DNA from: a virus
Length of the DNA stretch: 36,642 nt
Virus record (IMG/VR): IMGVR_UViG_3300011116_000965
Location: 1 to 36,642 of that record
Strand: one strand, 5' to 3'
Made by a program: the position numbers and the translations under genes. Below are positions 1,039-26,485 of this stretch, in pieces. Positions within the stretch are counted from its first letter, which is position 1. Each line of letters opens with the position of its first letter. The notes under the pieces were generated by a model. That model made no database searches and was not told the origin of the DNA. It saw nothing but the letters and a program-made list of their open reading frames with translations.

Positions 1039-1440
1039 TCACGCATCAATCGGCACGACCTCTGCCTTGCGGATAACCGTCATTTGGCGGGCGCTCTCGC
1101 CAGGCAGGCGCAGACCGTAGCCCTCGCGGACGACTCTCACCCGATCGTCCGAGAAAACAGGCGCCTTCGATACCATCGTGGCGCCGCTAAAGTCGGCGCG
1201 GAGGCCCTCCTCATATAGTCTGCCGCCGCCCAAGGCCTCGAGGCGGTCGACGATAGACGATATACGCTCGTCAGTGCCCGGCAGCCGCTCGGTGCTAAGC
1301 GCTCCGGCCCACACGAGGAGGTCAGTAACCTCTGCGAGTCGCTCCGCACGCGTCATCTGGCTGACCGGCGTCGAGCCCACCGGCGGACCTAGTCCAGTCC
1401 GCCCTGATTGCCCGACGCCGCTGCCTTTGCCTCGTCCCAT
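1039..1440 (-). CDS. Hypothetical protein, leftward
   Basis: 133 aa. The first 28 residues are Gly/Pro/Ser-rich and likely disordered. From about residue 29 (MTRAERLAEVTDLLVW) the protein looks folded, with two amphipathic helices followed by a short basic beta-type segment (about 98-130). An internal Met at 29 could be the true start. The annotated ATG lies exactly 14 nt downstream of a minus-strand TTGAC (1459-1455), which favours the long form. It is divergent from the gene at 1484 and is the only leftward gene among the structural genes. No family recognised. Confidence 0.55.
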   Translation of the reverse strand: MGRGKGSGVGQSGRTGLGPPVGSTPVSQMTRAERLAEVTDLLVWAGALSTERLPGTDERISSIVDRLEALGGGRLYEEGLRADFSGATMVSKAPVFSDDRVRVVREGYGLRLPGESARQMTVIRKAEVVPIDA

Positions 1441-1454
1441 ATGCCCGCGGCCGA

Positions 1455-1467
1455 GTCAACCGTTGAC
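1455..1467. promoter_or_regulatory. Back-to-back TTGAC start motifs (GTCAACCGTTGAC)
   Basis: GTCAACCGTTGAC is a near-perfect inverted repeat in the 43-bp gap between divergent genes. Each arm gives a GTTGAC pointing at one gene: 14 nt to the leftward ATG at 1440 and 16 nt to the rightward ATG at 1484. It may be an operator or two copies of the start-site motif described in the findings. Confidence 0.4.
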
Positions 1468-1483
1468 ACTCCGTCAGGGGAGC

Positions 1484-2254
1484 ATGCCTGTCCCCGTTGT
1501 CGACAACACCACAAGCGTCCTAGCGTGGGTGCGCGGAAAATACTACGCTTTCCAGCCTGCGCTCGCTGCCGGAAGCGACGCGGCGACCGGCTGGAATATC
1601 GCCAGCGGCGCTCTCCCTGACGGAGTCACGCTTAACTCTACGACCGGCCTCATTTCCGGCACGGTAGACACCGAGGCCGAGGGCTCCATCTGGGTCGCCC
1701 AGCTTCGGGCCAGCAACGCATCTGGAAACTCGGCGCCGGTCAGGCTGACGTTCGGCGTCGAATATCCGGAGGTCGAGGCCGACGGCGCCTTGCACGCGCT
1801 GTTTGACCTCGATTCCGGCATGATCGCCTTCCGCGGCCTCGATCAGGTCTCCGAAGACGGCCTAGCAATCGCGCACGTCAAGGGTCGCGACGAGTTTCCG
1901 CTCGCGATCCAGTTCGTTCGCAGGAAGACCGTCATCGACCTTCCCGTAGTCGGCATTACGGTCGGAGCCAAACGCTACGAGCCGGAGGCGCTCATCAACC
2001 TTCAGGCCAACAACGACGACATCGTCTACCTCGAGGGCGACGGCGAGACCGCTCGCTACGTCGTTTGGCTCGACCTGTCCGCCTCTGCGCTGGCCAACGC
2101 GCTGGCCGATGAGGAGTCCGATGACGGGACCGCGGTTGCTGTCCTTGCCGAGCTGCAGGTCGAATACCTAGTGGACATGGGCGAGGAAGAAGAACGCACC
2201 GCCAAACGCACCAGTTTGTCATTTTGGCTCATGGTGCATAGAGATCTGATCTGA
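1484..2254 (+). CDS. Virion/tail-associated protein with Ig-like (He_PIG) domain
   Basis: 256 aa. Residues about 15-95 form an Ig-like domain of the He_PIG type: the hallmark is SGALPDGVTLNSTTGLISGT at 41-60, where P-x-G-L/V...T-G-x-I-x-G-T is diagnostic. The C-terminal half (about 100-256) is unassigned and beta-rich with an acidic patch (MGEEEE) near the end. In phages such domains sit on fibres and baseplates and are thought to bind surface glycans. The start at 1484 has a Shine-Dalgarno-like AGGGGAG and a TTGAC 16 nt upstream; the frame stays open further upstream, but that part would read over the opposite-strand gene. The next gene starts 2 bases after the stop. Confidence 0.6.
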   Translation: MPVPVVDNTTSVLAWVRGKYYAFQPALAAGSDAATGWNIASGALPDGVTLNSTTGLISGTVDTEAEGSIWVAQLRASNASGNSAPVRLTFGVEYPEVEADGALHALFDLDSGMIAFRGLDQVSEDGLAIAHVKGRDEFPLAIQFVRRKTVIDLPVVGITVGAKRYEPEALINLQANNDDIVYLEGDGETARYVVWLDLSASALANALADEESDDGTAVAVLAELQVEYLVDMGEEEERTAKRTSLSFWLMVHRDLI

Positions 2255-2256
2255 CC

Positions 2257-3189
2257 ATGACTGACAAAATCCCAAGCCGGATGCACTTTCCTTACGCGCT
2301 CCGGGTAGCGCGCAGGGGCTTTGCAATTCGGCGACTCAGCTGGACCGACGTCTGGTGGGTTTGGCGTTTTGGCGTCATGATCCGCATCGAGACTGGCGAG
2401 CCTGACCGCGTCGTCACCTCGACCGACTACGAGTCCGAGGATCTACTGTCTTGGGATTGGACCACGCTTCCGGCAGGATGCGAAGCGCTCGACCAATCGC
2501 CCGACATGGCGGAGCTGCTGACCGTCCGGCCATACGATGGCCTGCCGACCTCCGCCGATCCGCTCGGCCGCAAATGTGACTTGCCGACCAAGGCGGAGAC
2601 AATGGACGCGGTTGACTGGCCAACGCTGGCTCCGCCGAAGGTTGAGCGCCGCCGGGTCCAGTGGGCGCGACCGCCGTTTCCGCCTGCTCCGCCGCTACCG
2701 CAGAGTGACTGGCCGGTCAGCCAGTGGGACTTAAAAAAGCGCCGACGATTACCGCCCGGCGTGCAACCGCCGCCGCCGCCGCAGGCCGTTTCAGTGACGT
2801 GGCCGAACTTTATGTACCGCACCACGCAGGGCGGATCACTTAATTTTGTGCTTGGCAGCGCAAGCTGCCTGCCGTCGGGTCAGGGGCAAAGCATAACGGG
2901 GACATACGGACATTTTATTATCACCGGCGGACCCGCCGAAGCTGATTATGAAATTACGATCGGCCTCGCGAATAACGCAAACAGCCCGTCGAGCTTTACC
3001 TCTACGTGGTGGGAAGGCACGCGCGGCCCGTCCAATGACTGGTGGGCCTACGACGTCGACGGTTTGAACATATCTTACGAGGGCGGATCTGCGTCGATTC
3101 CGGCAGCGCTCCGCTACAGCCAAGTCGGAGGTGGCGCATCGGGCTGGATTGTCCGCAACATCTATTTTCCTGACGTCTGCGGCAGCTGA
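2257..3189 (+). CDS. Tad2/DUF2829-like N-terminus, Pro-rich linker, beta-rich C-terminus
   Basis: 310 aa in three parts. Residues about 9-72 match the DUF2829 pattern: F11, A14-L15, G21, R25, W29, a hydrophobic strand at 38-44, then DLLSWDW at 62-68, where the family has 'D-L-L/x-A-x-D-W'. Some DUF2829 proteins are Tad2, which binds the signal molecule of Thoeris defence. Residues about 118-180 are rich in Pro, Trp and Arg and look like a linker, including a PPPPP run. Residues about 180-310 are Gly/Ser/Trp-rich and probably beta-structured, with no family recognised; their codons are more A/T-rich than the neighbours, which hints at separate acquisition. It overlaps the glycosyltransferase start by one base. 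The domain call is from pattern memory, not a search. Confidence 0.5.
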   Translation: MTDKIPSRMHFPYALRVARRGFAIRRLSWTDVWWVWRFGVMIRIETGEPDRVVTSTDYESEDLLSWDWTTLPAGCEALDQSPDMAELLTVRPYDGLPTSADPLGRKCDLPTKAETMDAVDWPTLAPPKVERRRVQWARPPFPPAPPLPQSDWPVSQWDLKKRRRLPPGVQPPPPPQAVSVTWPNFMYRTTQGGSLNFVLGSASCLPSGQGQSITGTYGHFIITGGPAEADYEITIGLANNANSPSSFTSTWWEGTRGPSNDWWAYDVDGLNISYEGGSASIPAALRYSQVGGGASGWIVRNIYFPDVCGS

Positions 3190-4187
3190 TGAAGCGGCTC
3201 GACCCAAAACACGTCCGCGCAAAGTTCCGCGCACGAAAATCACGACCGCCTGCGGTGCTGGACCGCGCCGAGTCGGTGGAGCTAGGAGCCGTGGAGCAAC
3301 GCGCGCGGGAAAACATGCGCACCGGCCAACGTCCGGCGGCGAGCGGCAGGCTGAGAGTCGACGCGCTGGTCTGCGTCGCCACGCGTGAGGTTGCCGGAGA
3401 TCTGGCGCGGCTGATTCCGACGGCGCAATACCATATGCCGGAGCGGCCGCTCCATATCGTCTGTGACGCTGAGACTGGCAATTACGCACGCGCCATCTGC
3501 ACTCCGCTCGGTCTCGACAACGTCATCGCTCACGAGTGGCTGACGGCCGAGTCTCTGGCCATGGCTACATCGAGGCTCCGTCGCGTCGTCGAGCACAGCG
3601 ATTATTGGAAGCCCGCGCCACTCTGGTGGAAAATCGAAGGCCTCCGCAGGATCGTCCGACACTACAACGGCAACAAGGGCGTGCTCATGGTGGACTCGGA
3701 TATCGTTTTTGCCGCGCCCGTCACCGACTCATTCGTCGGCGTGGATACCGTGCTATCTCCGTTCCACTGGCCGGACCCAAACCTCAAGGTGCAGCGGTCG
3801 CCGCAAGACAAGACTATGATCCCGATCGCCGAGCGCGACGGTTGGTATAACGCAGGCTACCTACTGACGCGCTCAAGCGCCGTCTGCGACGCGTGGCTAG
3901 ACCTCTACGAGCGCGGAGTCGGCGGCTTTTACGAGCAGTGGATTCTCGGTCATCTGCCCGGCCTCTGCCGTCACGACATTTTCGGCACCGCGCATAACTG
4001 GGGCCAATGGAGGCGAGAGGTGCCGCGTGAGGACGTCGTCAGTCTACACATCCACGCCGCGACAAAACACAAGCCGCCCTTCGCGCTGGCGGTCCAGCAA
4101 CGGGCCGACTTCGAGGCCGAGCGCGCCGTCACGGCTCTTGCGCGTTTTGCCAAATTCACCGGCAGCCTGCCAACGCTCAACGAATGA
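3189..4187 (+). CDS. GT-A type glycosyltransferase (GT8-like)
   Basis: 332 aa. A basic N-terminus (1-55) precedes an alpha/beta nucleotide-sugar transferase core. The metal-binding DxD motif is in VLMVDSDIVF (D169, D171), followed by a GWYNAGYLL segment, where 'N-x-G' is typical for GT8-like acceptor-side loops, and a late LHIHAATKHKPP segment resembling the C-terminal His motif of these enzymes. It probably moves a sugar from a nucleotide donor to a protein or glycan acceptor in the cytoplasm. Overlaps of 1 and 4 bases tie it to the Tad2-like gene and the sulfotransferase, so the block is probably co-translated. Donor and acceptor cannot be told from sequence. Confidence 0.7.
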   Translation: MKRLDPKHVRAKFRARKSRPPAVLDRAESVELGAVEQRARENMRTGQRPAASGRLRVDALVCVATREVAGDLARLIPTAQYHMPERPLHIVCDAETGNYARAICTPLGLDNVIAHEWLTAESLAMATSRLRRVVEHSDYWKPAPLWWKIEGLRRIVRHYNGNKGVLMVDSDIVFAAPVTDSFVGVDTVLSPFHWPDPNLKVQRSPQDKTMIPIAERDGWYNAGYLLTRSSAVCDAWLDLYERGVGGFYEQWILGHLPGLCRHDIFGTAHNWGQWRREVPREDVVSLHIHAATKHKPPFALAVQQRADFEAERAVTALARFAKFTGSLPTLNE

Positions 4188-4855
4188 TCTGGCGAAACCA
4201 CAAAATCATTTTTTTGCATATCCCGCGGACCGGCGGCACCTCCCTGGAGATTGCGCTGTCAGGAGGCCGCGATCCGCTCGAGGTCGAGCAGGAAGAAGGC
4301 TACTGGCACAAGCACTTTGACGCGCTGCGCGCCGAGGCAATGTGGCCGGAGTTTGCCGCCCCTGACTATAGGGTCGTCGCCTTTGTTCGGCATCCGCTGG
4401 ACTTGGTTGCATCGCAATATCTCCAGACGCGAGCAAATCCGAGCGCGATCGGCTTCAACGCATGGATCCGGCGATGTCTTGAGGGCGGATATCCACTCTA
4501 CCCAGTATCTGCCGAGGTGGACGACTATATGTCAGAGCTAGTCCCGGCTGCATACTCGCGCACCTCCGCCGGAGACAGCCAACGCCGGTTTCTCGCGACT
4601 ACCAGTAGGCGGGAAATCCACATCTACAGATTCGAGCGACTCCGCGCCTCAATCAAAGCCGTCTGCGATCTGGCCGGGATAGCGGCGCCCTCACCGATGC
4701 CCGACTCCGGAATCAGGCTGCCGGGCGAGTATCCCGGCATCCCGCGAGACAAGCGCGGCGTCCTGCGCTACCGCGCCATGTACGAGCGCGACACCAAAAA
4801 GGCCGTGACGCAGCGACTCGCCGACGACTTAGCACTCTGGCAAAGCGCTCTATGA
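4184..4855 (+). CDS. PAPS-dependent carbohydrate sulfotransferase
   Basis: 223 aa. Residues 10-20, FLHIPRTGGTS, are the 5'-phosphosulfate loop of carbohydrate sulfotransferases (family form 'h-I-P-K-x-G-T/G-S/T'). FVRHPLDLVASQY (68-79) is the 3'-phosphate site, with R69 and S77 at the conserved places. A YRFERL segment near 148 matches the later conserved strand. The enzyme would transfer sulfate from PAPS to a sugar hydroxyl. It overlaps the glycosyltransferase before it and the small terminase after it (ATGA), so it belongs to the late operon. Sulfotransferases are rare in tailed phages; target and purpose are inferred only. Confidence 0.8.
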   Translation: MIWRNHKIIFLHIPRTGGTSLEIALSGGRDPLEVEQEEGYWHKHFDALRAEAMWPEFAAPDYRVVAFVRHPLDLVASQYLQTRANPSAIGFNAWIRRCLEGGYPLYPVSAEVDDYMSELVPAAYSRTSAGDSQRRFLATTSRREIHIYRFERLRASIKAVCDLAGIAAPSPMPDSGIRLPGEYPGIPRDKRGVLRYRAMYERDTKKAVTQRLADDLALWQSAL

Positions 4856-12436: not shown

Positions 12437-12745
12437 ATGAGCCGGTATACTGAAATCGAAGCCGACTTGGCCGAGGTCCTTGCCGACATTGGCTTGTCCG
12501 TCACTTGGGATGGCGACGATTACGACGCCATGGTTAGCGAGCCCAGAGTAAATTTCGATTTACAGTCCGGCGGATTTTCGGCCGACGCGGATTTTTCAGT
12601 CAAGATCCGCCGAATGGACCTGCCCGCGGAAGGCGGACCGGCGCTCAAGGATATCATCACTATCCAAGGCGCGAGCTACGTCGTCCGCGGTATCACGGAC
12701 GCTCCGTCTAGCCCTCTACTCGTCTACCACGTCGCCAGAAAATGA
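12437..12745 (+). CDS. Head-tail joining protein (gpFII-like, probable)
   Basis: 102 aa. A short helical N-terminus ([16 protein letters not shown]) is followed by beta strands, including [11 protein letters not shown] and [14 protein letters not shown], where a late 'G-x-x-Y-x-V' strand is common in head-tail connectors of the gpFII type. Position after capsid and cement and before the tail-terminator-like domain supports this. It overlaps the next gene by an ATGA junction. No unique motif, so moderate certainty. Confidence 0.5.
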
Positions 12746-15294
12746 ACGCCTCCGTCGAACTTGGTTTTAGGAATTGGCTCGACGACTTGGTCGAGACGCC
12801 AGTATTTACGGGCTCAAACGACGGCGAGGTCCCGGCCGACGCGCTCGCTATTATTATCAGCTGTCCGATGCTCGAGACGGTCGTGCTCCCGCTATACCGA
12901 GCAACGGTCGAGGTCGTGGTGCAGGGTCCGGCGAGCCACGAGCCGATCCAGGATTACCGAGACGTAGCGGCCGAGGTGCTCGACTACCTCCGCGCCCAGA
13001 GCCTTGGCGCACTGGCCGATGACCTACTGGCCGCGTCTGACTATTATTTCGGCGGCTTGTGGGTCGCGCAAAGTCAGGAGTCGGTCGAAGACGAGTATTG
13101 GCGTCATACTATAGAGCTACGGGTCGGCCTCAAGCGCGAACAGGACGGCACGCTCTGGCGTAACGGGCTGAGCGCCTACGAGATCGCCGTCGTGAATGGC
13201 TTCGACGGCACCGAGGAAGAGTGGCTTGAGTCGCTGGCTGGGCCGCCGGGCGCACCCGGCAGCGCCGGCGCACCCGGAGCACCCGGAGCACCCGGAGCGC
13301 CCGGAGCGCCGGGCGAGACGATTACTGCAATCACCGACAACGGCAACGGCACCCTGACCGTCACGACAAGCGCGACGAGTTACGGACCGTTCCCGTTGCT
13401 GAACGGTCCCGCCGGACCACAGGGCGACCCCGGGCCGCCGGGCGACGACGCTCTATGGAATTTCACAGGAGCCTACAACCCGGGGGCGGGTTATGCTGTC
13501 GGAGATGTCGCCACTTACGACGGCCAGACATGGTATAGGCTTGATTCGCACGGTGGCAACGTAGGGGATACTCCGGCGGAAGGACAATTCTGGACGTTAC
13601 TGTCGGCCAAAGGCGCTCTCGGCGAATCCGCCTACGATATTGCGGTCGCGAACGGGTTTCTGGGCACCGAGGCGGCGTGGTTGGCATCATTGGTTGGCGC
13701 TGCCGGAAGTCAAGGTCCGGCAGGCCCAGCAGGTCCCGCCGGAGAGGCTGGCCCGCCCGGCGCCGCAGGCGCGCAAGGTCCCGCCGGAGCTACAGGCCCG
13801 GCGGGTCCGGCCGGTCCAAAGGGCGACACGGGCGACACCGGCCCAGCTGGCGCAACGGGAGCTACAGGCCCGGCAGGTCCGGCAGGCCCCGCTGGACCGA
13901 CAGGCTTGACCGGAGCTACAGGCCCCGCAGGTCCAAACTCGGTCTCAACCTCGACCGGATCGACGATCACGGGGCTGATCAAGGGCGCGAGCGGAAACCT
14001 AGCTGCCGCCGTGGCCGGAACTGACTACGCTGCCGCCTCGCACAAGCACTTCCTGAGCGACAGTATGCCAGATTTGTGGGCGAATGGTGCTAATTTGGCA
14101 TACCGCTATGCTCAGCAGGATTGGTATTTGCAGGCTGGCACGCAGACCATCCGTGTTTACAAAGATGGCTCGAACTGGAAACTCAACTTTGTAAATGATG
14201 ATCCAGAAGATACACAAAACGTCACGATCACTGGCGGAACTGGTATTTATCCGTGGACGTCGCCCCAAAATTTCCGCGACGCAGGATGGACAGTAAGACC
14301 CGTGTTATTCGAGCTGCTGATTGACCAACTTGGCCCCCCAACAGACAACACAGACCTCAACGCCACTACATCGGCGCACGGGCTGCTTCCCAAACTTGGC
14401 GGCGGCACAACCAATTTCCTGCGAGCCGACGGAACATGGGCCGTCCCTCCCGGCGCACCGGCGCCGGTGAACATCGGCCTTTACACCGCCAACGACACCT
14501 GGACGAATCCCTCACCGAGCGTCCCAAAGCGGGTGTTTGTCCGGTTGGTCGGAGGCGGCGGAGGCGGGGGGAGCGGGCGTAAGGGCCCGGCTGGCGGTTT
14601 CCGGTGTGGTGGCGGAGGCGGTGCGGGTGGGTGCGTTGTTGAGTTTTGGAGCCTGACCACCGACTTGGGCTCGACGGTCTCGGTGACTATCGGGGCGGGC
14701 GGAACCGGCGGTGCGGCGGTCGCGACTAATAGCACCAACGGTGCCGCTGGCACGGCTGGAGGAGCCACTACATTCGGCGGCGGCACAGCTTCAGGAGGCC
14801 CGGGAGGTGGAGCCGGGACAGCTAGTAGCGGCACTGCCGGGTTCGGCGTTACTGGGGGCAATTTATTTGACGATGGCGTGTCCACCGGTAGTCATGGCGG
14901 GGCGGCAAGCACGTCGGGAGGCGTTGGGGCCAATGGCACTGGGACGGCGGGATCACTGCCGAGCGGGGGCGGCGCTGGCGGGGGCATCACTAGCACAAAT
15001 ACTAACTCCGCCGGAGGCTCGGGAGGTGCCGTAGGGTCTGCTGCCATTGGGTTGATTGCTGGCGGATCTGCTGGAGCAGCGGCGGGGAACGGAGGCGCAG
15101 GGAATGCTGGGCGCGGGGTAGGCACTGGTGGCGGCGGAGGTGGCGGTGGTGGGACCGGGAACGTAGGAGGAGGTAACGGAGGCGGATTCGGAGCCGGAGG
15201 TGGCGGCGGTGGCGGCATCCTGAATGACACCGCAGCCACTAACGCGGGCGGGAACGGTTCGCCCGGGTATGCACTCATCGTCACCTATCTATGA
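12742..15294 (+). CDS. Tail-terminator-like domain fused to collagen-like, Gly-rich tail fibre
   Basis: 850 aa, multi-domain. Residues 1-135 look like a gpU-type tail terminator (segments [36 protein letters not shown]). About 146-166 is a [20 protein letters not shown] motif, repeated at about 297-316; this unit often precedes collagen repeats in phage fibres. Collagen-like G-x-y tracts lie at about 166-191 and 322-400. About 237-290 resembles a CBM5/12-type sugar-binding module ([20 protein letters not shown]). A lower-GC insert codes about 434-533. Residues about 602-843 are a Gly-rich adhesin like those at T-even-type fibre tips, which form receptor-binding loops. Fusion of a tail completion domain to a fibre is unusual. 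Confidence 0.7.
13237..13940 (+). repeat. Collagen-type G-x-y coding repeats (two blocks)
   Basis: Blocks at about 13237-13315 and 13705-13940 repeat 9-base units such as GGAGCACCC and GCAGGTCCG, coding for G-A-P and G-P-A triplets. Such repeats vary in number by slippage, so the fibre shaft length probably differs among relatives. Confidence 0.8.
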
Positions 15295-15680
15295 GACTAG
15301 CACATATTGAAAACGGAGAGGTCGTGAACGTATCGTTGGCGCCGGACGACTACGTCTTGCCCGACGACGGTAGCCAGATGCTGGAGGCTGATGCGTTGGC
15401 TGCCGGTTTGTTGCGTCGCGTGCGCCCCGGCGAAGCTCGCGAGCAAGCACGGCAGGCGCTTCGCGACCAGTGGGCCAGTCTCCCGGCCTGGATCCGTGGA
15501 CCGTATCATGCCGCGTTTGTGTCCGTCGCGCAACTGCTCGACTCGAGCGAGGACGATGCCGCCGAGGCGCTTATCCGCCTCGCCCCGCCTATGCCCGGCT
15601 TCTCCCTTGACCAGCTAGGCGAATTTGCCGAACTGCGCGAGCAGTTGGCCGATGCGATCGCTGACCTGCCCGCAATTTGA
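15291..15680 (+). CDS. Small fibre-associated protein, possible fibre assembly chaperone
   Basis: 129 aa. The first 40 residues ([20 protein letters not shown], then YVLPDDGSQ) resemble the N-terminal beta segment of small proteins encoded after phage tail fibres. The rest is helical and acidic ([17 protein letters not shown]). It overlaps the fibre gene by ATGA. No catalytic motif. A chaperone or cap role is inferred from position. Confidence 0.4.
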
Positions 15681-15695
15681 CACCTCCCTAAAAGC

Positions 15696-16016
15696 ATGGC
15701 CGCCCACCTCGGAGTAACCACCAATTTTGGACTGACAAAACCGGCAGGCTCGTATGTTAGCGAGTCATCGCGTGAGGAGAGCATCGACGTTGCCACGGTC
15801 CGCAACGAGTCCGGCGTGACTGTCGTGGCGGTCCCCAAGCCTCTCATCACGCGGACCGTCAACATCAAGGGTAAGGGCGACGCGGACCTTGCCGGAGTTT
15901 CCGCCGGAGCATTTACCGCTGGGACTCTCCGTATCACCGAAGCCAAGCAGTCCGAGAGCAACGACGACTTCCCTGACTTCGAGATCACGGGAGTTGCCTA
16001 CCTCGACATCGACTAA
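15696..16016 (+). CDS. Tail tube-like protein A
   Basis: 106 aa, beta-rich. It is paralogous to the next gene: both have an E-S-x-x-E segment near 23-27, a V-x-G-K/R-G-D strand near 60, and end with S-E-x-N-D-D-F followed by a (D/N)-F/S-x-(I/L)-(T/S)-G-x-x-Y strand. Small beta proteins before the chaperone/tape measure genes are usually tail tube subunits. It has the TTGAC-N14-ATG signature; the TGA inside TTGAC is the stop of the previous gene. Function is inferred from place and fold reading. Confidence 0.5.
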   Translation: MAAHLGVTTNFGLTKPAGSYVSESSREESIDVATVRNESGVTVVAVPKPLITRTVNIKGKGDADLAGVSAGAFTAGTLRITEAKQSESNDDFPDFEITGVAYLDID

Positions 16017-16026
16017 CCATACGACC

Positions 16027-16356
16027 ATGCCAGTAAATCTCAACGCCATCGGTATCCAGTCCATCGAGCTAACCCTCGCCGAGTCGGTCGAGCGGACGGC
16101 CAAGATTGAAACGGCCGCGGTCAACAACTACCTCGGCGGCTTCGGTCACGCAGCGACGTATGATCCGACGACGGATTTCTCGGTCTCTGGTCGCGGTGAT
16201 CTCCCGGCCGGTCTGGCTGTCGGAGTCTCCGGCGACGGCATTGACGGCCTTTTCGCTGGCGGGACGACGATCGTCACGAGCGTGACCGAGTCCGAGCGCA
16301 ACGACGACTTCAACTCGTGGGAGCTTAGCGGGACCAACTATCCGGGCGCCGATTGA
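16027..16356 (+). CDS. Tail tube-like protein B (paralogue)
   Basis: 109 aa. Aligns with the previous protein over nearly its full length; shared features include the G-R-G-D strand, A-G-G-T...I-V-T and SERNDDFNSWELSG near the end. The ATG at 16027 was chosen because the upstream extension is a shadow of the previous gene. Two tube-like paralogues may build a mixed tube or divide tube and adaptor roles. It overlaps the next gene at ATTGA. Confidence 0.5.
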   Translation: MPVNLNAIGIQSIELTLAESVERTAKIETAAVNNYLGGFGHAATYDPTTDFSVSGRGDLPAGLAVGVSGDGIDGLFAGGTTIVTSVTESERNDDFNSWELSGTNYPGAD

Positions 16357-18139: not shown

Positions 18140-19990
18140 ATGGCCGCAATCACCGCCGAATTATCCCTCGACGCCGCGCAATTTGCGAACGGTCTGAAGC
18201 GCGCCGACGCTTCGCTGAAGCGTTTTTCAACGCGGGCGACCGCTACTGGCAGGACAGCGCAAAGAGGCATGTTCGGCGGCTTCGGCCGTGCAGCAAATGA
18301 GGCCGGCGAACTAATCGCTGGCGCTCTGACGGGGCGCTCTCCGGCGACTTTGCTGCACCGACACTTTGACGAGCTGGGCAAGGTTTTGGGTCCAGCGCTT
18401 GTCGGCGGCCTAGCTGCCGTGGGCATTGGCCAGCAGGTGGTCGGGGCGGTCAAAAAGTCCATGGAGGCTGAGACCATGGCGATCTCCATGGAGGTATTGA
18501 TCGGCGACGCCACCAAGGCCAAGCAGACGTTGGCCGACCTGCGCAAGATGGCGGCCGCGACGCCGTTTGAATTTCCGGATCTGGCCGACGCTACGAAGAC
18601 CCTGCTAGGGTTTGGCGTCGCAAATGAAGACGTGCTGGGCACTCTGGGCACCATCTCGGACGTCGCTCAGGGCAACTCCGAGACCCTGAGTCGCCTAGCT
18701 CTCGTCTACGGTCAGATTTCGTCCACCGGCAGACTGATGGGGCAGGATTTGCTCCAGCTAATCAACGCTGGATTTAACCCGCTCACTGTCATCGCCGAGC
18801 AGACCGGCGAGTCCATGATCGAGCTGAAGAAGCGCATGGAGGCTGGGCAAGTTTCGTTCGCGGAAGTGCAAGCTGCGTTTGTCTCGGTCACGAGCGAGGG
18901 CGGGAGGTTTTATAAGATGAATCAGCGCCAGTCTCAGACCGCGTCTGGCCTGCTCTCGACTCTGGCGGACGCATGGGGTGAGGTGCAGATGGCTTTCGGC
19001 GCTCCGATCGTGGATACCATCGGGCCGTTTATCCAAGGGACAATCGACCTTGTCAAGGGTCTGCAAGACGAGGCCGCGGCCTTCGGGCGCGCGGTGGCTG
19101 AGGCCATGCTGGCAGCTCAGTCGGTCATGGCTGCGTTTACCGGCGCCGAGATGGGCCAGCTCGTCATGCAGAGCCTAACGCTCGCGTTTAAAACGTCTCT
19201 CAACATTTTCGCCAGAGGCTTCGTGGGCACCATTTCGGCGTCTCTGCAATATATGCGCGAGCAGTTTGTCGCTCTCGTCGCGTTCTTGTCGGTGCTTGCA
19301 AAGCCGGAATTTTGGTCGGCGATCGGCAAGGCGTTGACCGCTATGGTCAACGGCGTTGGCGCGCTACTGATGGACCTCATTGCCCGCGCGCTTGACGGGC
19401 TGTCGAGAGTGCCCGGCATCGGCGCGAAAGCCGCCGAAGGAGCTGCGATATTCCGGCAGGGCGCAACAGACCTGAGTCAGGCGGCGGGGGCGGCAGTTGG
19501 TCAGGGGCGCGACCTTATTTCGCCTGTCCTCGGCGAGACGGCCAGCCGACTTAGGGAGTCGGGCGATCGTTTGGTCGGCGCGTTTCGCGCAGGATTCGAA
19601 AACACGGCTGATATATTTGCGACGGATGCCGAAAAGGCCGCGCTCGCTGGTGCAGCCGCCAAGCTGGCCGCGAGCCGGGCCAAGCTTGAGGATGAGAAGG
19701 CTGCCAAGGCTGCGGCTGCCGCGGCAAAGGGCAAGGCGGCGCCGACGCCCACCGGCATTGCAGCCGCTGGTCAGGCAGCAACCCAAGGTCTCGGTCGTCC
19801 GGTCGGGCGGCTGGCGTCGGCGATCAATCTTATAATGGGCCGGAGCGCCAACGAGCTGATGTATGACGAGGCCAAAAAGCAGACCGCCCAGCAAGAGCAG
19901 ATGAACAAGACTCTTAGTAACATCGACCGCAACACAAGACCGCGACCGGGCGCACCGGTGACCATCGGAGCTACATTCGGACGGCCATGA
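18140..19990 (+). CDS. Tail tape measure protein
   Basis: 616 aa. Residues about 115-265 are the conserved tape-measure N-terminal domain: FPDLADATKTLLGFGV, GNSETLSRLALVYGQISSTGRLMGQDLLQL, and INAGFNPL, then MNQRQSQTASGLLSTLADAWGEV. Long hydrophobic helices follow (about 320-420). The C-terminal Ala/Lys coiled segment (about 510-545) is low complexity. At about 0.15 nm per residue the tail would be near 90 nm, short for a siphovirus. A CTGAC lies 14 nt before the ATG, a one-base variant of the start motif. Confidence 0.93.
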   Translation: MAAITAELSLDAAQFANGLKRADASLKRFSTRATATGRTAQRGMFGGFGRAANEAGELIAGALTGRSPATLLHRHFDELGKVLGPALVGGLAAVGIGQQVVGAVKKSMEAETMAISMEVLIGDATKAKQTLADLRKMAAATPFEFPDLADATKTLLGFGVANEDVLGTLGTISDVAQGNSETLSRLALVYGQISSTGRLMGQDLLQLINAGFNPLTVIAEQTGESMIELKKRMEAGQVSFAEVQAAFVSVTSEGGRFYKMNQRQSQTASGLLSTLADAWGEVQMAFGAPIVDTIGPFIQGTIDLVKGLQDEAAAFGRAVAEAMLAAQSVMAAFTGAEMGQLVMQSLTLAFKTSLNIFARGFVGTISASLQYMREQFVALVAFLSVLAKPEFWSAIGKALTAMVNGVGALLMDLIARALDGLSRVPGIGAKAAEGAAIFRQGATDLSQAAGAAVGQGRDLISPVLGETASRLRESGDRLVGAFRAGFENTADIFATDAEKAALAGAAAKLAASRAKLEDEKAAKAAAAAAKGKAAPTPTGIAAAGQAATQGLGRPVGRLASAINLIMGRSANELMYDEAKKQTAQQEQMNKTLSNIDRNTRPRPGAPVTIGATFGRP

Positions 19991-22240: not shown

Positions 22241-22398
22241 CTGAGGCGGAAGAGGAGCCAGACACTTTCGGCCTCGACAAGGATGCGCGGCTCGAATCAA
22301 AGCGCCAAAAAGCAGCTAACGAGGCCCGCGACGTCGATCCGCTTGATCCGCCATTCCCGTATTTTGTGATGCCGTTTGCTCCGCCCCGGGAGCGTTGA
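22237..22398 (+). CDS. Small acidic/Pro-rich hypothetical protein (53 aa)
   Basis: Reads MTEAEEEPDTFGLDKDARLES and ends PPFPYFVMPFAPPRER. The acidic start, charged helix and Pro/Phe-rich end suggest a linker or adaptor. ATGA overlap with the previous gene, and its stop (TGA 22396-22398) is part of the TTGAC before the next gene, which supports it being real despite its size. Confidence 0.6.
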   Translation: MTEAEEEPDTFGLDKDARLESKRQKAANEARDVDPLDPPFPYFVMPFAPPRER

Positions 22399-22418
22399 CA
22401 CTACCAAAAAACCGACCG

Positions 22419-24863
22419 ATGGAAGCCCTACTATACGCCAGCCTGACCAACCAGACCCTCTCTGAGACGCTCGGAGGGCCGGAATTTGACTGGCCAACCT
22501 TGACCGAGGGCGACAGCGTCAGGCTCGCTCTCCGGTTCGCCAACCGCATCGACGACGCGGACGTTGAGACCTATCCAGACGTCCAAACGGTAAGGTTGTC
22601 GATCGGCAGGATTGACTCTCGCCCAACCGGCGGGCAGTGGGCGCTAAAGCTTGGGGGCGGAAGCACGGTCGGCGGAACAAATACTACCGGCGCGCTTAGC
22701 TGGAATGCCACGGCGGCGCAGATCCAGACGGCGCTCGAAACGCTTATGGCTTCGCCGACGTTTGCCATCGCCGGTCAGGCCACCTTGCCAAACGCGGTCA
22801 CCGTAACCGCTAAAGATGGCTCGTTTTTGATCGTGTTCAATAACACATCGGTGGGTCAGTGGGCGAATGATATTACGCTTACCGCTGGGCTCAATACGCT
22901 CGACCCTGTGTCATTTGTCCGGCACCGGTCGTGGTTGTCCAATACGCAACGCATCCACGAGATCCGGCTAACCCAGTCTCCACTGGCGTTCGCGGATAGT
23001 TGGGATTTTGTTGTTCCAGCTGCACCAAGTGTTTCCGTTGTTCGGGAGGGCGGTGAATCCGCGGGTGTGAGTTATAACGAGATCCAGCGCCTTGATGTGC
23101 CGCCTGCGTTTCGTGGCAGCTACTATCTCCAACGCACCGACACCAGTCGGAAGAGCGAGCTGCTATCTACGGCCGACGGCCCGGAGGAAATCGCTCTGGC
23201 ACTTGGCAATCTCGCCGACGACGGAGGGCAGTTCGTGGTTACTAACCCGCTCAGTAATTCAGCCCACATTGAGTTCGCCGGATCCATGGGCGGCATTGAT
23301 CAGGATCTGCTCGAGGTCCACGTCGCGACGGCTCCGCCGGGAGACACGACGGTGGAGATGAGCCTGGCTACGGCCTCAGTGTATCAGCTTTTCCGAACCG
23401 CATCGCTCGTAGAGGGCTTGGCGCTCGAGCTGGAGGTTACATACGAAGGTCCGGACGAGGAGATCCGGACGTGGTCATACAGGACGACGGTCAGTATGCA
23501 GCGGGAGCTTATCTCTGCGGGACTGGCTGCCGCGCAGAATATTGACTGGCTTCGGCCTCCGGGTCCGCGCGACTACGTGCCGTTTTCGCCGAATCAGGTC
23601 ATCACTGGGAGCCAGCATTACGTTACTACGCTGGGGAACGGCGTGGACTCCGTCATTACCGTTGACCACAACCTCGACACCGAGGCTATTCATGTGACGA
23701 TCCGGGAAAACATCCCGGGAGGCGAGCTCCTTCGCCTCGGGTCCGACTACACGGTCGTCATCGACGACGAGAATTCGGTCACGGTCACGTTTGTTGCTGG
23801 CTATCCTGCGCTGGCCGAATACGCGGCTGTGATTACTTCAGCCGGGCCGACGTCGGCGTTTGTTAACCACACTCACACCATCGGGCAAATTACCGACTTG
23901 CAAAGCATCCTCGACGGTCTCGGTGAGCGGCTAAGCGACCTCGAGGAGCTGGCGCCCGCCGGAGTCCTTGCGTCTCCGGAGGCTACGTCGGTCTCGTCCT
24001 CGTGGACGTTGCCCAAGGTCTTTGAGGTTTACCCGGCGCGCGAGCCGGTCACGGCCGACAGCATCCAAGCGCTCATCGACGGCGACGTGGCGCTGCCAAA
24101 GGCTGGAGGACTGCTGGCGGCGATCCACGACGCGTCGACCGAGAGCCTGACGGTGCCGCTTCCTGCACCGGCGAGTAACCTCATCGGGCGCGTGTTCACG
24201 AACAACACCGGGTCGACCGTCACACTGCCGGGCGGTCTTGGACGGCGCGGCGTTTCGCTCAAAGCGGGCGAGTTCGCTGCGTGCGATGGCCGGGTGTGGT
24301 ATAAGGTTGAGCGATTTGGTGCGGAGTCGAGTTACTACCCGTCGGACTTCACGCGGGAGCTCTTTGCCTTGTTTGTAAACGAGCGCCAGTTCCGGCTCAA
24401 GACTGAGTTCAGTTTGCAGTTTGCCGTCGAGCTGGCAGTGCTCAAGAGCAACACGTCGTGCCAGTGGTCTCTCGAGATCCAGACTGGCACCGCGCCTCAG
24501 GACACGAGTCCCGGCACGACCGGCAGCAACCTCCAGAACGTGGTCTGGACCCCGACGCCCGTCTTAGCTCAACGGCTGATCCTGACGCCGGTTGCATGCC
24601 AGCACGTGTTCGGGCTGCGGGTCAAGCGCTCGCTCGTCGGTCTCACCGACACCATCACGCTCGACCAACTGCTCTACGGCGCGAGCATCGCCGGGACTGC
24701 TCCGGCGAGCGCCAATTTTGCGGTGCGGGCCCGACTTGTGCGCTTCGACACGGAAAACAGCCAAAGTGATCCGCGCGGATTCGTCGCGCTGAAAGGGCTT
24801 GGACTCACTAGCGAGCAGGCGGCGGAGTTCCCCGACATCGGCCGCGCGGTGATCCGTGCGTGA
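22419..24863 (+). CDS. Large tail/baseplate fibre-like protein (814 aa)
   Basis: The first half is beta-rich with repeated domain-like segments. A segment of about 75-150 (ATAAQIQTALETLMA then VTVTAKDGSFLIVFNN) resembles one at about 250-300 (PEEIALALGNLADDGGQFVVT), suggesting an internal duplication. Around residue 490 is VNHTHTIGQITDLQSIL, with the H-x-H type metal site often seen in phage fibres, followed by a short coiled coil. The start at 22419 is taken because the frame upstream holds only a TTG inside the previous stop; TTGAC is 19 nt upstream. It is the last rightward structural gene. Confidence 0.6.
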   Translation: MEALLYASLTNQTLSETLGGPEFDWPTLTEGDSVRLALRFANRIDDADVETYPDVQTVRLSIGRIDSRPTGGQWALKLGGGSTVGGTNTTGALSWNATAAQIQTALETLMASPTFAIAGQATLPNAVTVTAKDGSFLIVFNNTSVGQWANDITLTAGLNTLDPVSFVRHRSWLSNTQRIHEIRLTQSPLAFADSWDFVVPAAPSVSVVREGGESAGVSYNEIQRLDVPPAFRGSYYLQRTDTSRKSELLSTADGPEEIALALGNLADDGGQFVVTNPLSNSAHIEFAGSMGGIDQDLLEVHVATAPPGDTTVEMSLATASVYQLFRTASLVEGLALELEVTYEGPDEEIRTWSYRTTVSMQRELISAGLAAAQNIDWLRPPGPRDYVPFSPNQVITGSQHYVTTLGNGVDSVITVDHNLDTEAIHVTIRENIPGGELLRLGSDYTVVIDDENSVTVTFVAGYPALAEYAAVITSAGPTSAFVNHTHTIGQITDLQSILDGLGERLSDLEELAPAGVLASPEATSVSSSWTLPKVFEVYPAREPVTADSIQALIDGDVALPKAGGLLAAIHDASTESLTVPLPAPASNLIGRVFTNNTGSTVTLPGGLGRRGVSLKAGEFAACDGRVWYKVERFGAESSYYPSDFTRELFALFVNERQFRLKTEFSLQFAVELAVLKSNTSCQWSLEIQTGTAPQDTSPGTTGSNLQNVVWTPTPVLAQRLILTPVACQHVFGLRVKRSLVGLTDTITLDQLLYGASIAGTAPASANFAVRARLVRFDTENSQSDPRGFVALKGLGLTSEQAAEFPDIGRAVIRA

Positions 24864-25303: not shown

Positions 25304-26485
25304 TTATTCTTCGGACAACCTGCTTGGAGGGGCTTGGAGCTGCCCGCCAGCGTACCAGTCAAGGAGCGTCTTTGGGTCGTGGCGCGTGTAGTTGGCGGCG
25401 CTTTTGATGTCCCAACCAAGATCCCGAATGCACCGCTCGACGAACTGCCGCCGGAGCGCCTGGTTGGGTTTGCTGCGATGGGCCTCGTAGGCTGGCCCGG
25501 CTGGCAAAAACTGGCGCAGCCAGGCTGCATGGCGGCGCTTGACCAGGTCGAATCGCTCATTGTCGGTGCCCTCGACGACGTGAGGGCCGGGGCCGGCGAG
25601 CAGCTCGGCAGCTAGGTCGGCGGCGATCGGGAGGCGCGCGAGGGCGGATGGGTTTTTGCCCTGCCAGCCCTCGTCCGCCGTCAGGCAAAAAAACCACTGG
25701 CCTCCTGACTGAACGAGCCAGTCCTGCCGCGCGGCTACCGCCTCGGACGACCGCAGTCCGATATCTCGAAGCATGAGGTGCGCGCGCCAGAGACGCGGCT
25801 CGAGGTCTTTAGAAGCCGCAACGATCGCCGCCATTGCGTCGTCCGGCAGTGGGCGGTAGTCTGGCCGTCGTGACCGCGGCAGCTCGGCGCGCCGAAACCC
25901 GGCGATGGATGGCGGGATGGTCCACTGACTGAGCCAGCGCCGGTGCCTTGGGCCGAACATCGACCGCGCTGCCAGCAGGCACGTCCTTTGGCTGTACGGC
26001 GTCGTGGTGGCCGCGGCGCAATAGCGGTAGACGACGTCCTCGTCGAGCCGGTCGAGGCGGTGCTTGGCCGGGTCCAGACCTGCGAGCGTGGCGACCTTGA
26101 TTAAGGAGCGGGCGTAGTTGCGGGCGGTCGAGGGCCGGTCGGACTGAGCTTGGAACGCCGCGGCAAACTCCGCGATGGTCGGAGTCGGCTTGCCTCGTGG
26201 TCCCGGCCCGGCTGGCGTCCACTCGCGTCCTTGGTCATAGAGTCGCTGGATCACGAGCGCCGCCCTGCGCCGTGCCTCGCCCAGGTCGTCGGTCCGGAGA
26301 CTCCGGCGGGCCGGAGGGCGGTCTGGCATGTTGAGTCTGAGCCATAGGTTGGCCGAGTCGCTGCGTCGGCAGAGGTCGGCGCTCTGGCGCACCTTCTGGC
26401 CGCCGACGTGGACGGTCACGGTCACGGTCTCGACATGGGTCACGAGCCCAGACTGTGCTCGTTTTGTGCTCGAGGCAAGGGCCAA
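25304..26485 (-). CDS. int: Tyrosine recombinase (phage integrase)
   Basis: 393 aa. N-terminal about 20-90 is an arm-binding-like domain; 100-190 is the SAM-like core-binding domain (TIAEFAAAFQAQ). The catalytic domain has R245 (GLRSSEA), K277 (GWQGK), R345 (QALRRQF), H369 (YTRHDPKTLLDWY) and nucleophile Y378. Spacing H-Y (9) and R-H (24) fits the family. The residue three before R345, normally His, is Gln342. It acts at the adjacent attP to insert the genome at a tRNA-Leu gene. The start is uncertain: TTG at 26485 lies in a tandem repeat, and no ATG is available close by. Confidence 0.9.
   Translation of the reverse strand: MALASSTKRAQSGLVTHVETVTVTVHVGGQKVRQSADLCRRSDSANLWLRLNMPDRPPARRSLRTDDLGEARRRAALVIQRLYDQGREWTPAGPGPRGKPTPTIAEFAAAFQAQSDRPSTARNYARSLIKVATLAGLDPAKHRLDRLDEDVVYRYCAAATTTPYSQRTCLLAARSMFGPRHRRWLSQWTIPPSIAGFRRAELPRSRRPDYRPLPDDAMAAIVAASKDLEPRLWRAHLMLRDIGLRSSEAVAARQDWLVQSGGQWFFCLTADEGWQGKNPSALARLPIAADLAAELLAGPGPHVVEGTDNERFDLVKRRHAAWLRQFLPAGPAYEAHRSKPNQALRRQFVERCIRDLGWDIKSAANYTRHDPKTLLDWYAGGQLQAPPSRLSEE
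26453..26472. repeat. Arm-type direct repeat, copy 1
   Basis: CTGTGCTCGTTTTGTGCTCG, matched 19 of 20 by the copy at 26648-26667. The pair flanks the att core on both sides in the same orientation, as integrase arm sites do. It lies inside the integrase 5' end. Confidence 0.6.

What the first reader, a model, noticed from the sequence alone, without database searches (positions are those of the whole stretch)
12742..15294. Tail-terminator-like domain fused to a collagen/Gly-rich adhesin
The first 135 residues resemble gpU-type tail completion proteins, and without a stop the frame continues through two collagen blocks, a sugar-binding-like module and a large Gly-rich adhesin. This would place fibres at the head-proximal tail end (a collar fibre) rather than at the tip. 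The gene's location among connector genes agrees.
Basis: partly seen in the sequence, partly recalled or inferred. Interest (0 to 1): 0.6.

Follow-up and report, generated by a model that had tools for sequence, protein, structure and literature searches.

The report
Tail-terminator-anchored collagen neck fibre
In this metagenomic siphophage, probably of a Verrucomicrobiota host, the protein that caps the head end of the tail continues without a stop into a collagen-and-glycine-rich fibre, which should place a sticky fibre at the virus's neck instead of its tail tip; its closest relatives build a different kind of neck fibre onto the same cap protein.

Summary
12742-15294 is one uninterrupted 850-aa frame. 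Residues 1-135 are predicted to have the tail-terminator fold: AlphaFold2 pLDDT 88, VIA-align Z 13.2 to lambda gpU and T5 p142. The gene lies between the stopper and the tail genes. A linker, collagen blocks, a weak CBM5/12-like module and a Gly-rich tip follow in frame. Standalone relatives end at the domain boundary.

The strongest evidence comes from relatives with 85-86% identical capsid protein. Their terminator is also C-terminally extended, but by a bead domain (phrog_4368). The next gene encodes a protein 43% identical to gp81, the shaft of the EM-documented neck fibre of Anabaena phage A-1(L), followed by a Gly-rich tip homologous to the window's tip. So in this lineage the terminator appears to replace the usual fibre anchor, and the shaft is exchangeable (bead chain or collagen). 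The codon signal stays in one frame across the junction and no credible internal start exists.

This is a new variant of a known kind, neck (collar) fibres. Neck location, trimer-on-hexamer geometry (two fibres predicted) and adhesive function are inferred, not shown. The collagen version is known from one contig only.

The parts
12437..12745 (+). Head-tail stopper/attachment protein (gpFII / Hc1-like), immediately upstream and overlapping by ATGA
   Evidence: Pfam Phage_attach E=1.8e-5; PHROG 82 head closure Hc1 E=1e-3
12742..13134 (+). Tail-terminator domain, residues 1-131 of the 850-aa fusion
   Evidence: AF2 pLDDT 87.7; Foldseek/VIA-align hits to lambda gpU, T5 p142 and other terminators, Z up to 13.3; 30-43% identity to relatives' terminators
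13159..13239 (+). Linker with 'SAYEIAVxNGFxGTExEWLxSL' module, copy 1 (about residues 140-166)
   Evidence: Repeated at 13609-13695, 71% DNA identity over 69 nt; same motif in many phage fibre genes
13240..13320 (+). Collagen block 1, residues 167-193 (9 Gly-X-Y triplets)
   Evidence: Pfam Collagen with 4 stretches
13405..13449 (+). Short Gly-X-Y run, residues 222-236 (5 triplets)
13471..13578 (+). CBM5/12-like module, residues 244-279 (weak)
   Evidence: Pfam CBM_5_12 E=0.0028, below cut-off
13609..13695 (+). Second copy of the NGF linker module (about residues 290-318)
   Evidence: repeat D3
13696..13938 (+). Collagen block 2, residues 319-399 (27 Gly-X-Y triplets)
   Evidence: Pfam Collagen best stretch 319-376, E=5e-15 for the protein
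13954..14451 (+). Shaft-tip connector (residues 405-570)
   Evidence: Residues 429-647 align to the L003 tip protein at 48% identity; alignment A3
14452..15291 (+). Gly-rich tip (residues 571-850), presumed adhesin
   Evidence: PHROG 754 E=9e-14 and PHROG 863 E=2e-17 (tail); homologous to the separate tip genes of L003/L005/L007/L009; Gly_rich_2 weak, E=0.014
15291..15680 (+). Small gene overlapping the fusion by ATGA; candidate fibre assembly chaperone or cap
   Evidence: First 45 residues 60% identical to the gene that follows the tip gene in L003; no family match; function inferred from position
15696..16356 (+). Two small genes in the tail-tube position (15696-16016 and about 16027-16356)
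   Evidence: Their homologues follow standalone terminators directly in L013, L022, L023, L031, L040; role inferred from position
18140..19990 (+). Tail tape measure protein
   Evidence: PHROG 9959 tail length tape measure E=2.6e-48

Best explanation
The 850-aa protein is the phage's tail terminator with a fibre built onto its C-terminus. Six copies of the N-terminal domain should form the ring that caps the tail tube and docks to the stopper. Their C-terminal arms leave the ring, pass through a short linker and pair in threes through the collagen blocks. Six arms in trimers give two collagen-shafted fibres per virion. Each fibre carries a CBM5/12-like module part-way along the shaft and ends in a Gly-rich tip, probably folded or capped with help of the 129-aa gene behind it. 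The fibre projects from the neck and probably gives low-affinity contact with host or extracellular polysaccharide, as proposed for neck fibres of other phages; receptor binding at the tail tip would be left to the distal tail proteins. Shown here: the single frame, the predicted terminator fold, the gene context, the modular swap in relatives, and homology of the relatives' shaft to a documented neck fibre. Inferred: hexamer, trimers, fibre number, neck position in the particle, and adhesion.
For: Terminator fold. Gene order stopper, this gene, tube-position genes, tape measure. In relatives the same domain stands alone at 129-137 aa (122 in one) between stopper and the next tail gene. In the closest relatives (L003, L005, L007, L009) the terminator continues into a 120-residue bead domain matching phrog_4368 (E=3e-9). 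The next gene matches the same family (5e-12) and is 43% identical to A-1(L) gp81 (E=1e-25 in the phage collection). A-1(L) gp81 (4e-22) and the C-terminal half of gp82 (3e-13) also match phrog_4368. A-1(L) gp82-gp81-gp80 form five about 100-nm fibres at the head-tail junction, with gp82N as anchor, gp82C/gp81 as trimeric beads and gp80 as tip (PMC10966104). The relatives' third gene is a Gly-rich tip homologous to the window's C-terminus, and the small downstream gene is shared. The extended terminators group together on the tree, support 77/76. Junction in frame with no credible internal start.
Against: No particle has been seen. The collagen fusion is known from one contig; in other phages and prophages the domain is usually standalone. 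Tree support for one origin of the extended forms is modest. A C-terminal His-tag on T5 p142 caused aberrant polymerisation, and the authors suggest the tag may fold into the lumen (PMC11784142), so a C-terminal arm on a terminator is not obviously harmless. Only the bead family of A-1(L)'s fibre is recognisable in the relatives by sequence, and none of it in the window protein itself. The tip model was too poor to interpret (pLDDT 45). The CBM match is below cut-off. The distal CBM of A-1(L) gp80 did not bind its host (PMC10966104), so adhesion may be weak or absent.
Confidence: 0.72

Rival explanations
1. Terminator and fibre are made or matured as two separate chains (internal start, or proteolysis at the linker). 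The fibre then goes elsewhere, for example to the tail tip, and the fusion is only a genetic arrangement.
For: Relatives encode a tip and shaft as separate genes. The linker after residue 131 is hydrophilic, and a GTG exists at residue 151.
Against: The GTG has no clear ribosome-binding site and would cut a conserved linker module that is complete in its second copy. There is no in-frame ATG between residues 43 and 442. In relatives too the terminator carries a fibre domain directly. No cleavage evidence was found.
Confidence: 0.13
2. The fusion is a sequencing or assembly artefact joining a standalone terminator to a separate fibre gene.
For: Only one contig shows the collagen fusion, and many relatives have a standalone terminator. 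Repetitive Gly-X-Y DNA can misassemble.
Against: The frame is open across 850 codons and the codon signal does not change frame at the junction. A separate fibre gene would lack a good start. Several relatives from independent metagenomes also show an extended terminator, and the extension begins at the same boundary.
Confidence: 0.06
3. The N-terminal domain has the terminator fold but has been recruited only as a fibre anchor, and the true terminator is another protein in this phage.
For: Fold does not prove function; other phage ring proteins are built from related domains.
Against: The gene sits exactly where the terminator sits in relatives with a single standalone copy. The profile search found only one such domain in each of the relatives' virus records G003 and G004, and a protein search found only one in the window. 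A divergent second terminator would escape these searches.
Confidence: 0.07

Closest known systems
Tail terminator proteins (lambda gpU, SPP1 gp17, T5 p142, R4C terminator)
   Same: Predicted fold and position between stopper and tube; size of the domain
   Different: Those end at the domain; here a fibre of about 719 residues follows. No sequence-family match.
Neck fibre of Anabaena phage A-1(L) (gp82-gp81-gp80; PMC10966104)
   Same: In relatives L003/L005/L007/L009: anchor with C-terminal bead, separate bead gene (43% identical to gp81), separate tip gene. The window has the same order of anchor, shaft and tip in one chain.
   Different: A-1(L) anchors the fibre by gp82N on a 15-mer neck protein, not by the terminator. 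The window uses a collagen shaft instead of beads. A-1(L) is a myophage with five fibres.
Lactococcal neck passage structure (NPS) of 936 and P335 siphophages (PMC6669499)
   Same: Neck-located trimeric fibres ending in carbohydrate-binding modules, proposed accessory adhesion
   Different: NPS begin with a BppU-like beta-sandwich and a coiled coil; here the anchor is the terminator and the shaft is collagen.
Phage collagen-like fibres (E. coli prophage collagens, PMC3368898, seen here as title and abstract only)
   Same: Gly-X-Y shaft in a phage protein
   Different: Not known to me to be joined to a terminator
Neck-fibre-like cassettes in Flavobacterium phage 11b, Pseudomonas phage KPP25, Acidovorax phage AP1
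   Same: Mini-collagen and bead gene, then a bead gene, then a tip-like gene; in 11b placed between stopper-like and terminator-like genes
   Different: They seem to use their own anchor and not the terminator; roles read by eye, no structure test

Membership tests
Phage tail terminator (gpU/gp17 fold) | Terminator alpha/beta fold | tested here: met
   AF2 model 87.7 pLDDT; VIA-align Z 8-13 to some 50 entries, nearly all terminators and cap proteins
Phage tail terminator (gpU/gp17 fold) | Gene between stopper and tail tube genes | tested here: met
   Stopper upstream by Pfam and PHROG; tube role of the downstream genes is by position only; same order in relatives
Phage tail terminator (gpU/gp17 fold) | Hexameric ring capping the tube | not testable with these tools
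   No multimer prediction or particle
Phage tail terminator (gpU/gp17 fold) | Match to a curated terminator sequence family (supporting, not defining) | tested here: inconclusive
   No useful Pfam or PHROG match for residues 1-145; terminators are known to be sequence-diverse
A-1(L)-type bead-chain neck fibre | Bead domain (phrog_4368; gp81/gp82C) | tested here: not met
   No blastp match of the window protein to gp81 or the relatives' bead; present in relatives L003/L005/L007/L009. The window is therefore not filed as a member, only as working like one.
A-1(L)-type bead-chain neck fibre | Fibres visible at the head-tail junction | not testable with these tools
   Needs electron microscopy
Phage collagen-like fibre | Gly-X-Y collagen repeats | tested here: met
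   Pfam Collagen E=5e-15; 9+5+27 triplets
Phage collagen-like fibre | Trimeric triple helix | not testable with these tools
   Needs circular dichroism or a structure
Lactococcal-type neck passage structure | BppU-like N-terminal domain and coiled-coil shaft | tested here: not met
   N-terminus is a terminator fold; shaft is collagen

The most novel reading that the evidence does not exclude
In a lineage of phages, probably of Verrucomicrobiota, the tail terminator itself has become the anchor of neck fibres. The shaft behind it is an exchangeable cassette: a bead chain homologous to the A-1(L) neck fibre in one branch, a collagen rod with an internal CBM-like module in the other, with related Gly-rich tips. 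A hexameric ring and trimeric shafts would give two neck fibres per virion.
Probability: 0.6. Interest if true: 0.66.

Novelty: new variant of a known kind. Interest (0 to 1): 0.56.

Why it matters
Neck fibres have been seen in T4, A-1(L), lactococcal and other phages, but how they are anchored differs and is often unknown. Here an essential tail-capping protein would double as the anchor, which ties a fibre to the last step of tail assembly. The relatives form a natural series (no extension, bead extension, collagen extension), and the work gives a neck-fibre reading to the unannotated family phrog_4368. No report of a terminator-fibre fusion was found in the open-access literature searched.

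Tried and rejected
Pfam and PHROG searches with the isolated N-terminal domain gave nothing useful, and tblastn of it in annotated phages found nothing; only the structure search settled the fold. Scans of viral and genome contigs with the single N-terminal sequence found no relative; searching with the major capsid protein did. PDB sequence searches gave no credible hit for the terminator profile; for the L003 terminator the A-1(L) neck fibre chain 8keg appeared only at E=0.35 and was not used as evidence on its own. A LacI-family hit (E=0.006) was judged chance. AlphaFold2 of the tip region gave pLDDT 45 and was not searched further. A sequencing frameshift at the junction and an internal start near 13150 were tested and disfavoured. 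Akkermansia phage Chantilly was fetched as the nearest annotated phage by capsid protein, but its genes between capsid and tail are unnamed and were not compared further. A profile search of 384 genomes of the class of the MAG CE-Jul18-43 found nine with the terminator, none in a frame longer than 230 codons, so no second fused case came from there.

Full report
What is in the sequence. The window is a whole IMG/VR virus record of 36,642 bases. The frame 12742-15294 is open over 850 codons, starts with an ATG that overlaps the stop of the upstream gene (ATGA), and is followed by another ATGA overlap with a 129-aa gene. The upstream gene matches the head-tail attachment protein family (Pfam Phage_attach; PHROG 82 head closure). 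Further upstream lie a GP7-like major capsid protein, an S49 protease and a portal protein. Two small genes in the tail-tube position and a tape measure protein follow downstream.

The first domain. Residues 1-135 have no useful sequence-family match, but with five homologues aligned the AlphaFold2 model is confident (pLDDT 87.7, pTM 0.83). Foldseek returns phage tail terminators and their cap homologues nearly exclusively. The VIA-align second look gives Z 13.3 for the Sf14 neck chain, 13.2 for lambda gpU and T5 p142, 12.4 for Mu and the gene transfer agent, 10.9 for R4C and 9.4 for the A-1(L) terminator. Together with the gene order this makes the assignment as tail terminator very likely (about 0.95).

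The rest of the chain. After residue 131 come a linker with a 'SAYEIAVxNGFxGTExEWLxSL' module, 9 Gly-X-Y triplets, a spacer with 5 more triplets, a weak CBM5/12 match (E=0.003), a second copy of the linker module, 27 Gly-X-Y triplets, a connector and a Gly-rich C-terminus. The linker module is common in phage fibre genes. The C-terminus matches tail-fibre PHROGs.

Is the fusion real? Codon-usage likelihood, trained on other genes of the window, favours the same frame on both sides of the junction, with no sign that another frame takes over; the signal is weak within the collagen and Gly-rich parts, as expected from their composition. The only candidate start between residues 107 and 218 is GTG 151, which would cut the linker module. 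No read data were available, so an artefact is not strictly excluded.

Relatives. Searching with the capsid protein found related phage contigs and Verrucomicrobiaceae MAGs. Three states occur in the slot between stopper and tube genes. (1) A standalone terminator, with the next tail gene directly behind it: L013, L022, L023, L031, L040, L041, L043, L046, L048; L042 has a separate 311-aa gene with a CBM5/12 match in the slot. (2) A terminator of 253 aa whose last 120 residues form an extra domain, followed by a 171-aa gene, a 296-435-aa Gly-rich gene and a 127-aa gene: L003, L005, L007, L009 and copies from other metagenomes. (3) The window: one chain. In a 14-row tree the extended forms fall on one side of a branch with support 77/76, which is compatible with one origin of the extension followed by a shaft swap, but does not show it.

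Why this points to the neck. The extra domain of state 2 and the following gene both match phrog_4368, as do gp81 and the C-terminal half of gp82 of Anabaena phage A-1(L). The 171-aa protein is 43% identical to gp81. In A-1(L), gp82, gp81 and gp80 form five beaded fibres of about 100 nm at the head-tail junction: gp82N anchors, gp82C and gp81 are trimeric beads, gp80 is the tip (PMC10966104). State 2 has the same order, with the terminator in the place of gp82N. The window's tip is homologous to the tip gene of state 2 (48% over 235 columns with L003), so the collagen fibre of the window is best read as the counterpart of a neck fibre, not of a tail-tip fibre.

How it probably works. Terminator rings in solved phage structures are hexamers, and collagen and gp81-type beads are trimeric. 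Six arms therefore suggest two fibres per virion. This is an inference. Adhesion is suggested by the CBM-like module and the Gly-rich tip and by the low-affinity binding seen for a lactococcal neck-fibre domain (PMC6669499); A-1(L) gp80 showed no binding to its host (PMC10966104), so a non-adhesive role is possible. The 129-aa gene, conserved over its first 45 residues in relatives, may be an assembly factor; this rests on position only.

Limits. One contig shows the collagen form. The tip model failed. A C-terminal tag on T5 p142 perturbed assembly (PMC11784142), so the path of the arm out of the ring is the main open structural question. The literature search covers open-access full texts only.

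Noticed in passing
L026:8144-10501 (Flavobacterium phage 11b), L027:3669-6617 (KPP25), L028:4977-7539 (Acidovorax AP1): Gene groups of a small anchor-like gene, a mini-collagen+bead gene, a bead gene and a tip-like gene that look like neck-fibre cassettes; relatives of the bead protein occur in 63 phage records, most annotated 'hypothetical'.
   Followed up: partly
L042:1871-2806: Verrucomicrobiae-class genome with a separate 311-aa gene holding a CBM5/12 match (E=5e-6) in the slot between terminator and next tail gene.
   Followed up: partly
window 4184-4855 and 3189-4187: Sulfotransferase-like protein (E=0.007, below cut-off) beside an unassigned 332-aa protein that looks glycosyltransferase-like by eye, ahead of the terminase.
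   Followed up: no
window 22395-24863: 822-aa protein at the end of the tail genes with a weak 'phage tail repeat' match and a head-decoration-like stretch (phrog_2647 at 404-466, E=1e-4); candidate distal receptor-binding protein.
   Followed up: no
window 1178-2254: 358-aa protein with a putative Ig domain (He_PIG, E=8e-10) upstream of the terminase, possibly another surface protein.
   Followed up: no
window 25304-26485 (-): Integrase-like protein by sequence reading (only a weak DUF6538 match), suggesting a temperate phage.
   Followed up: no
phage hits H84, H116, H117 and others: The same NGF linker module lies in genes annotated 'tail sheath' in phiKZ-like and Acinetobacter phages; those names may be mis-annotations or fusions.
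   Followed up: no
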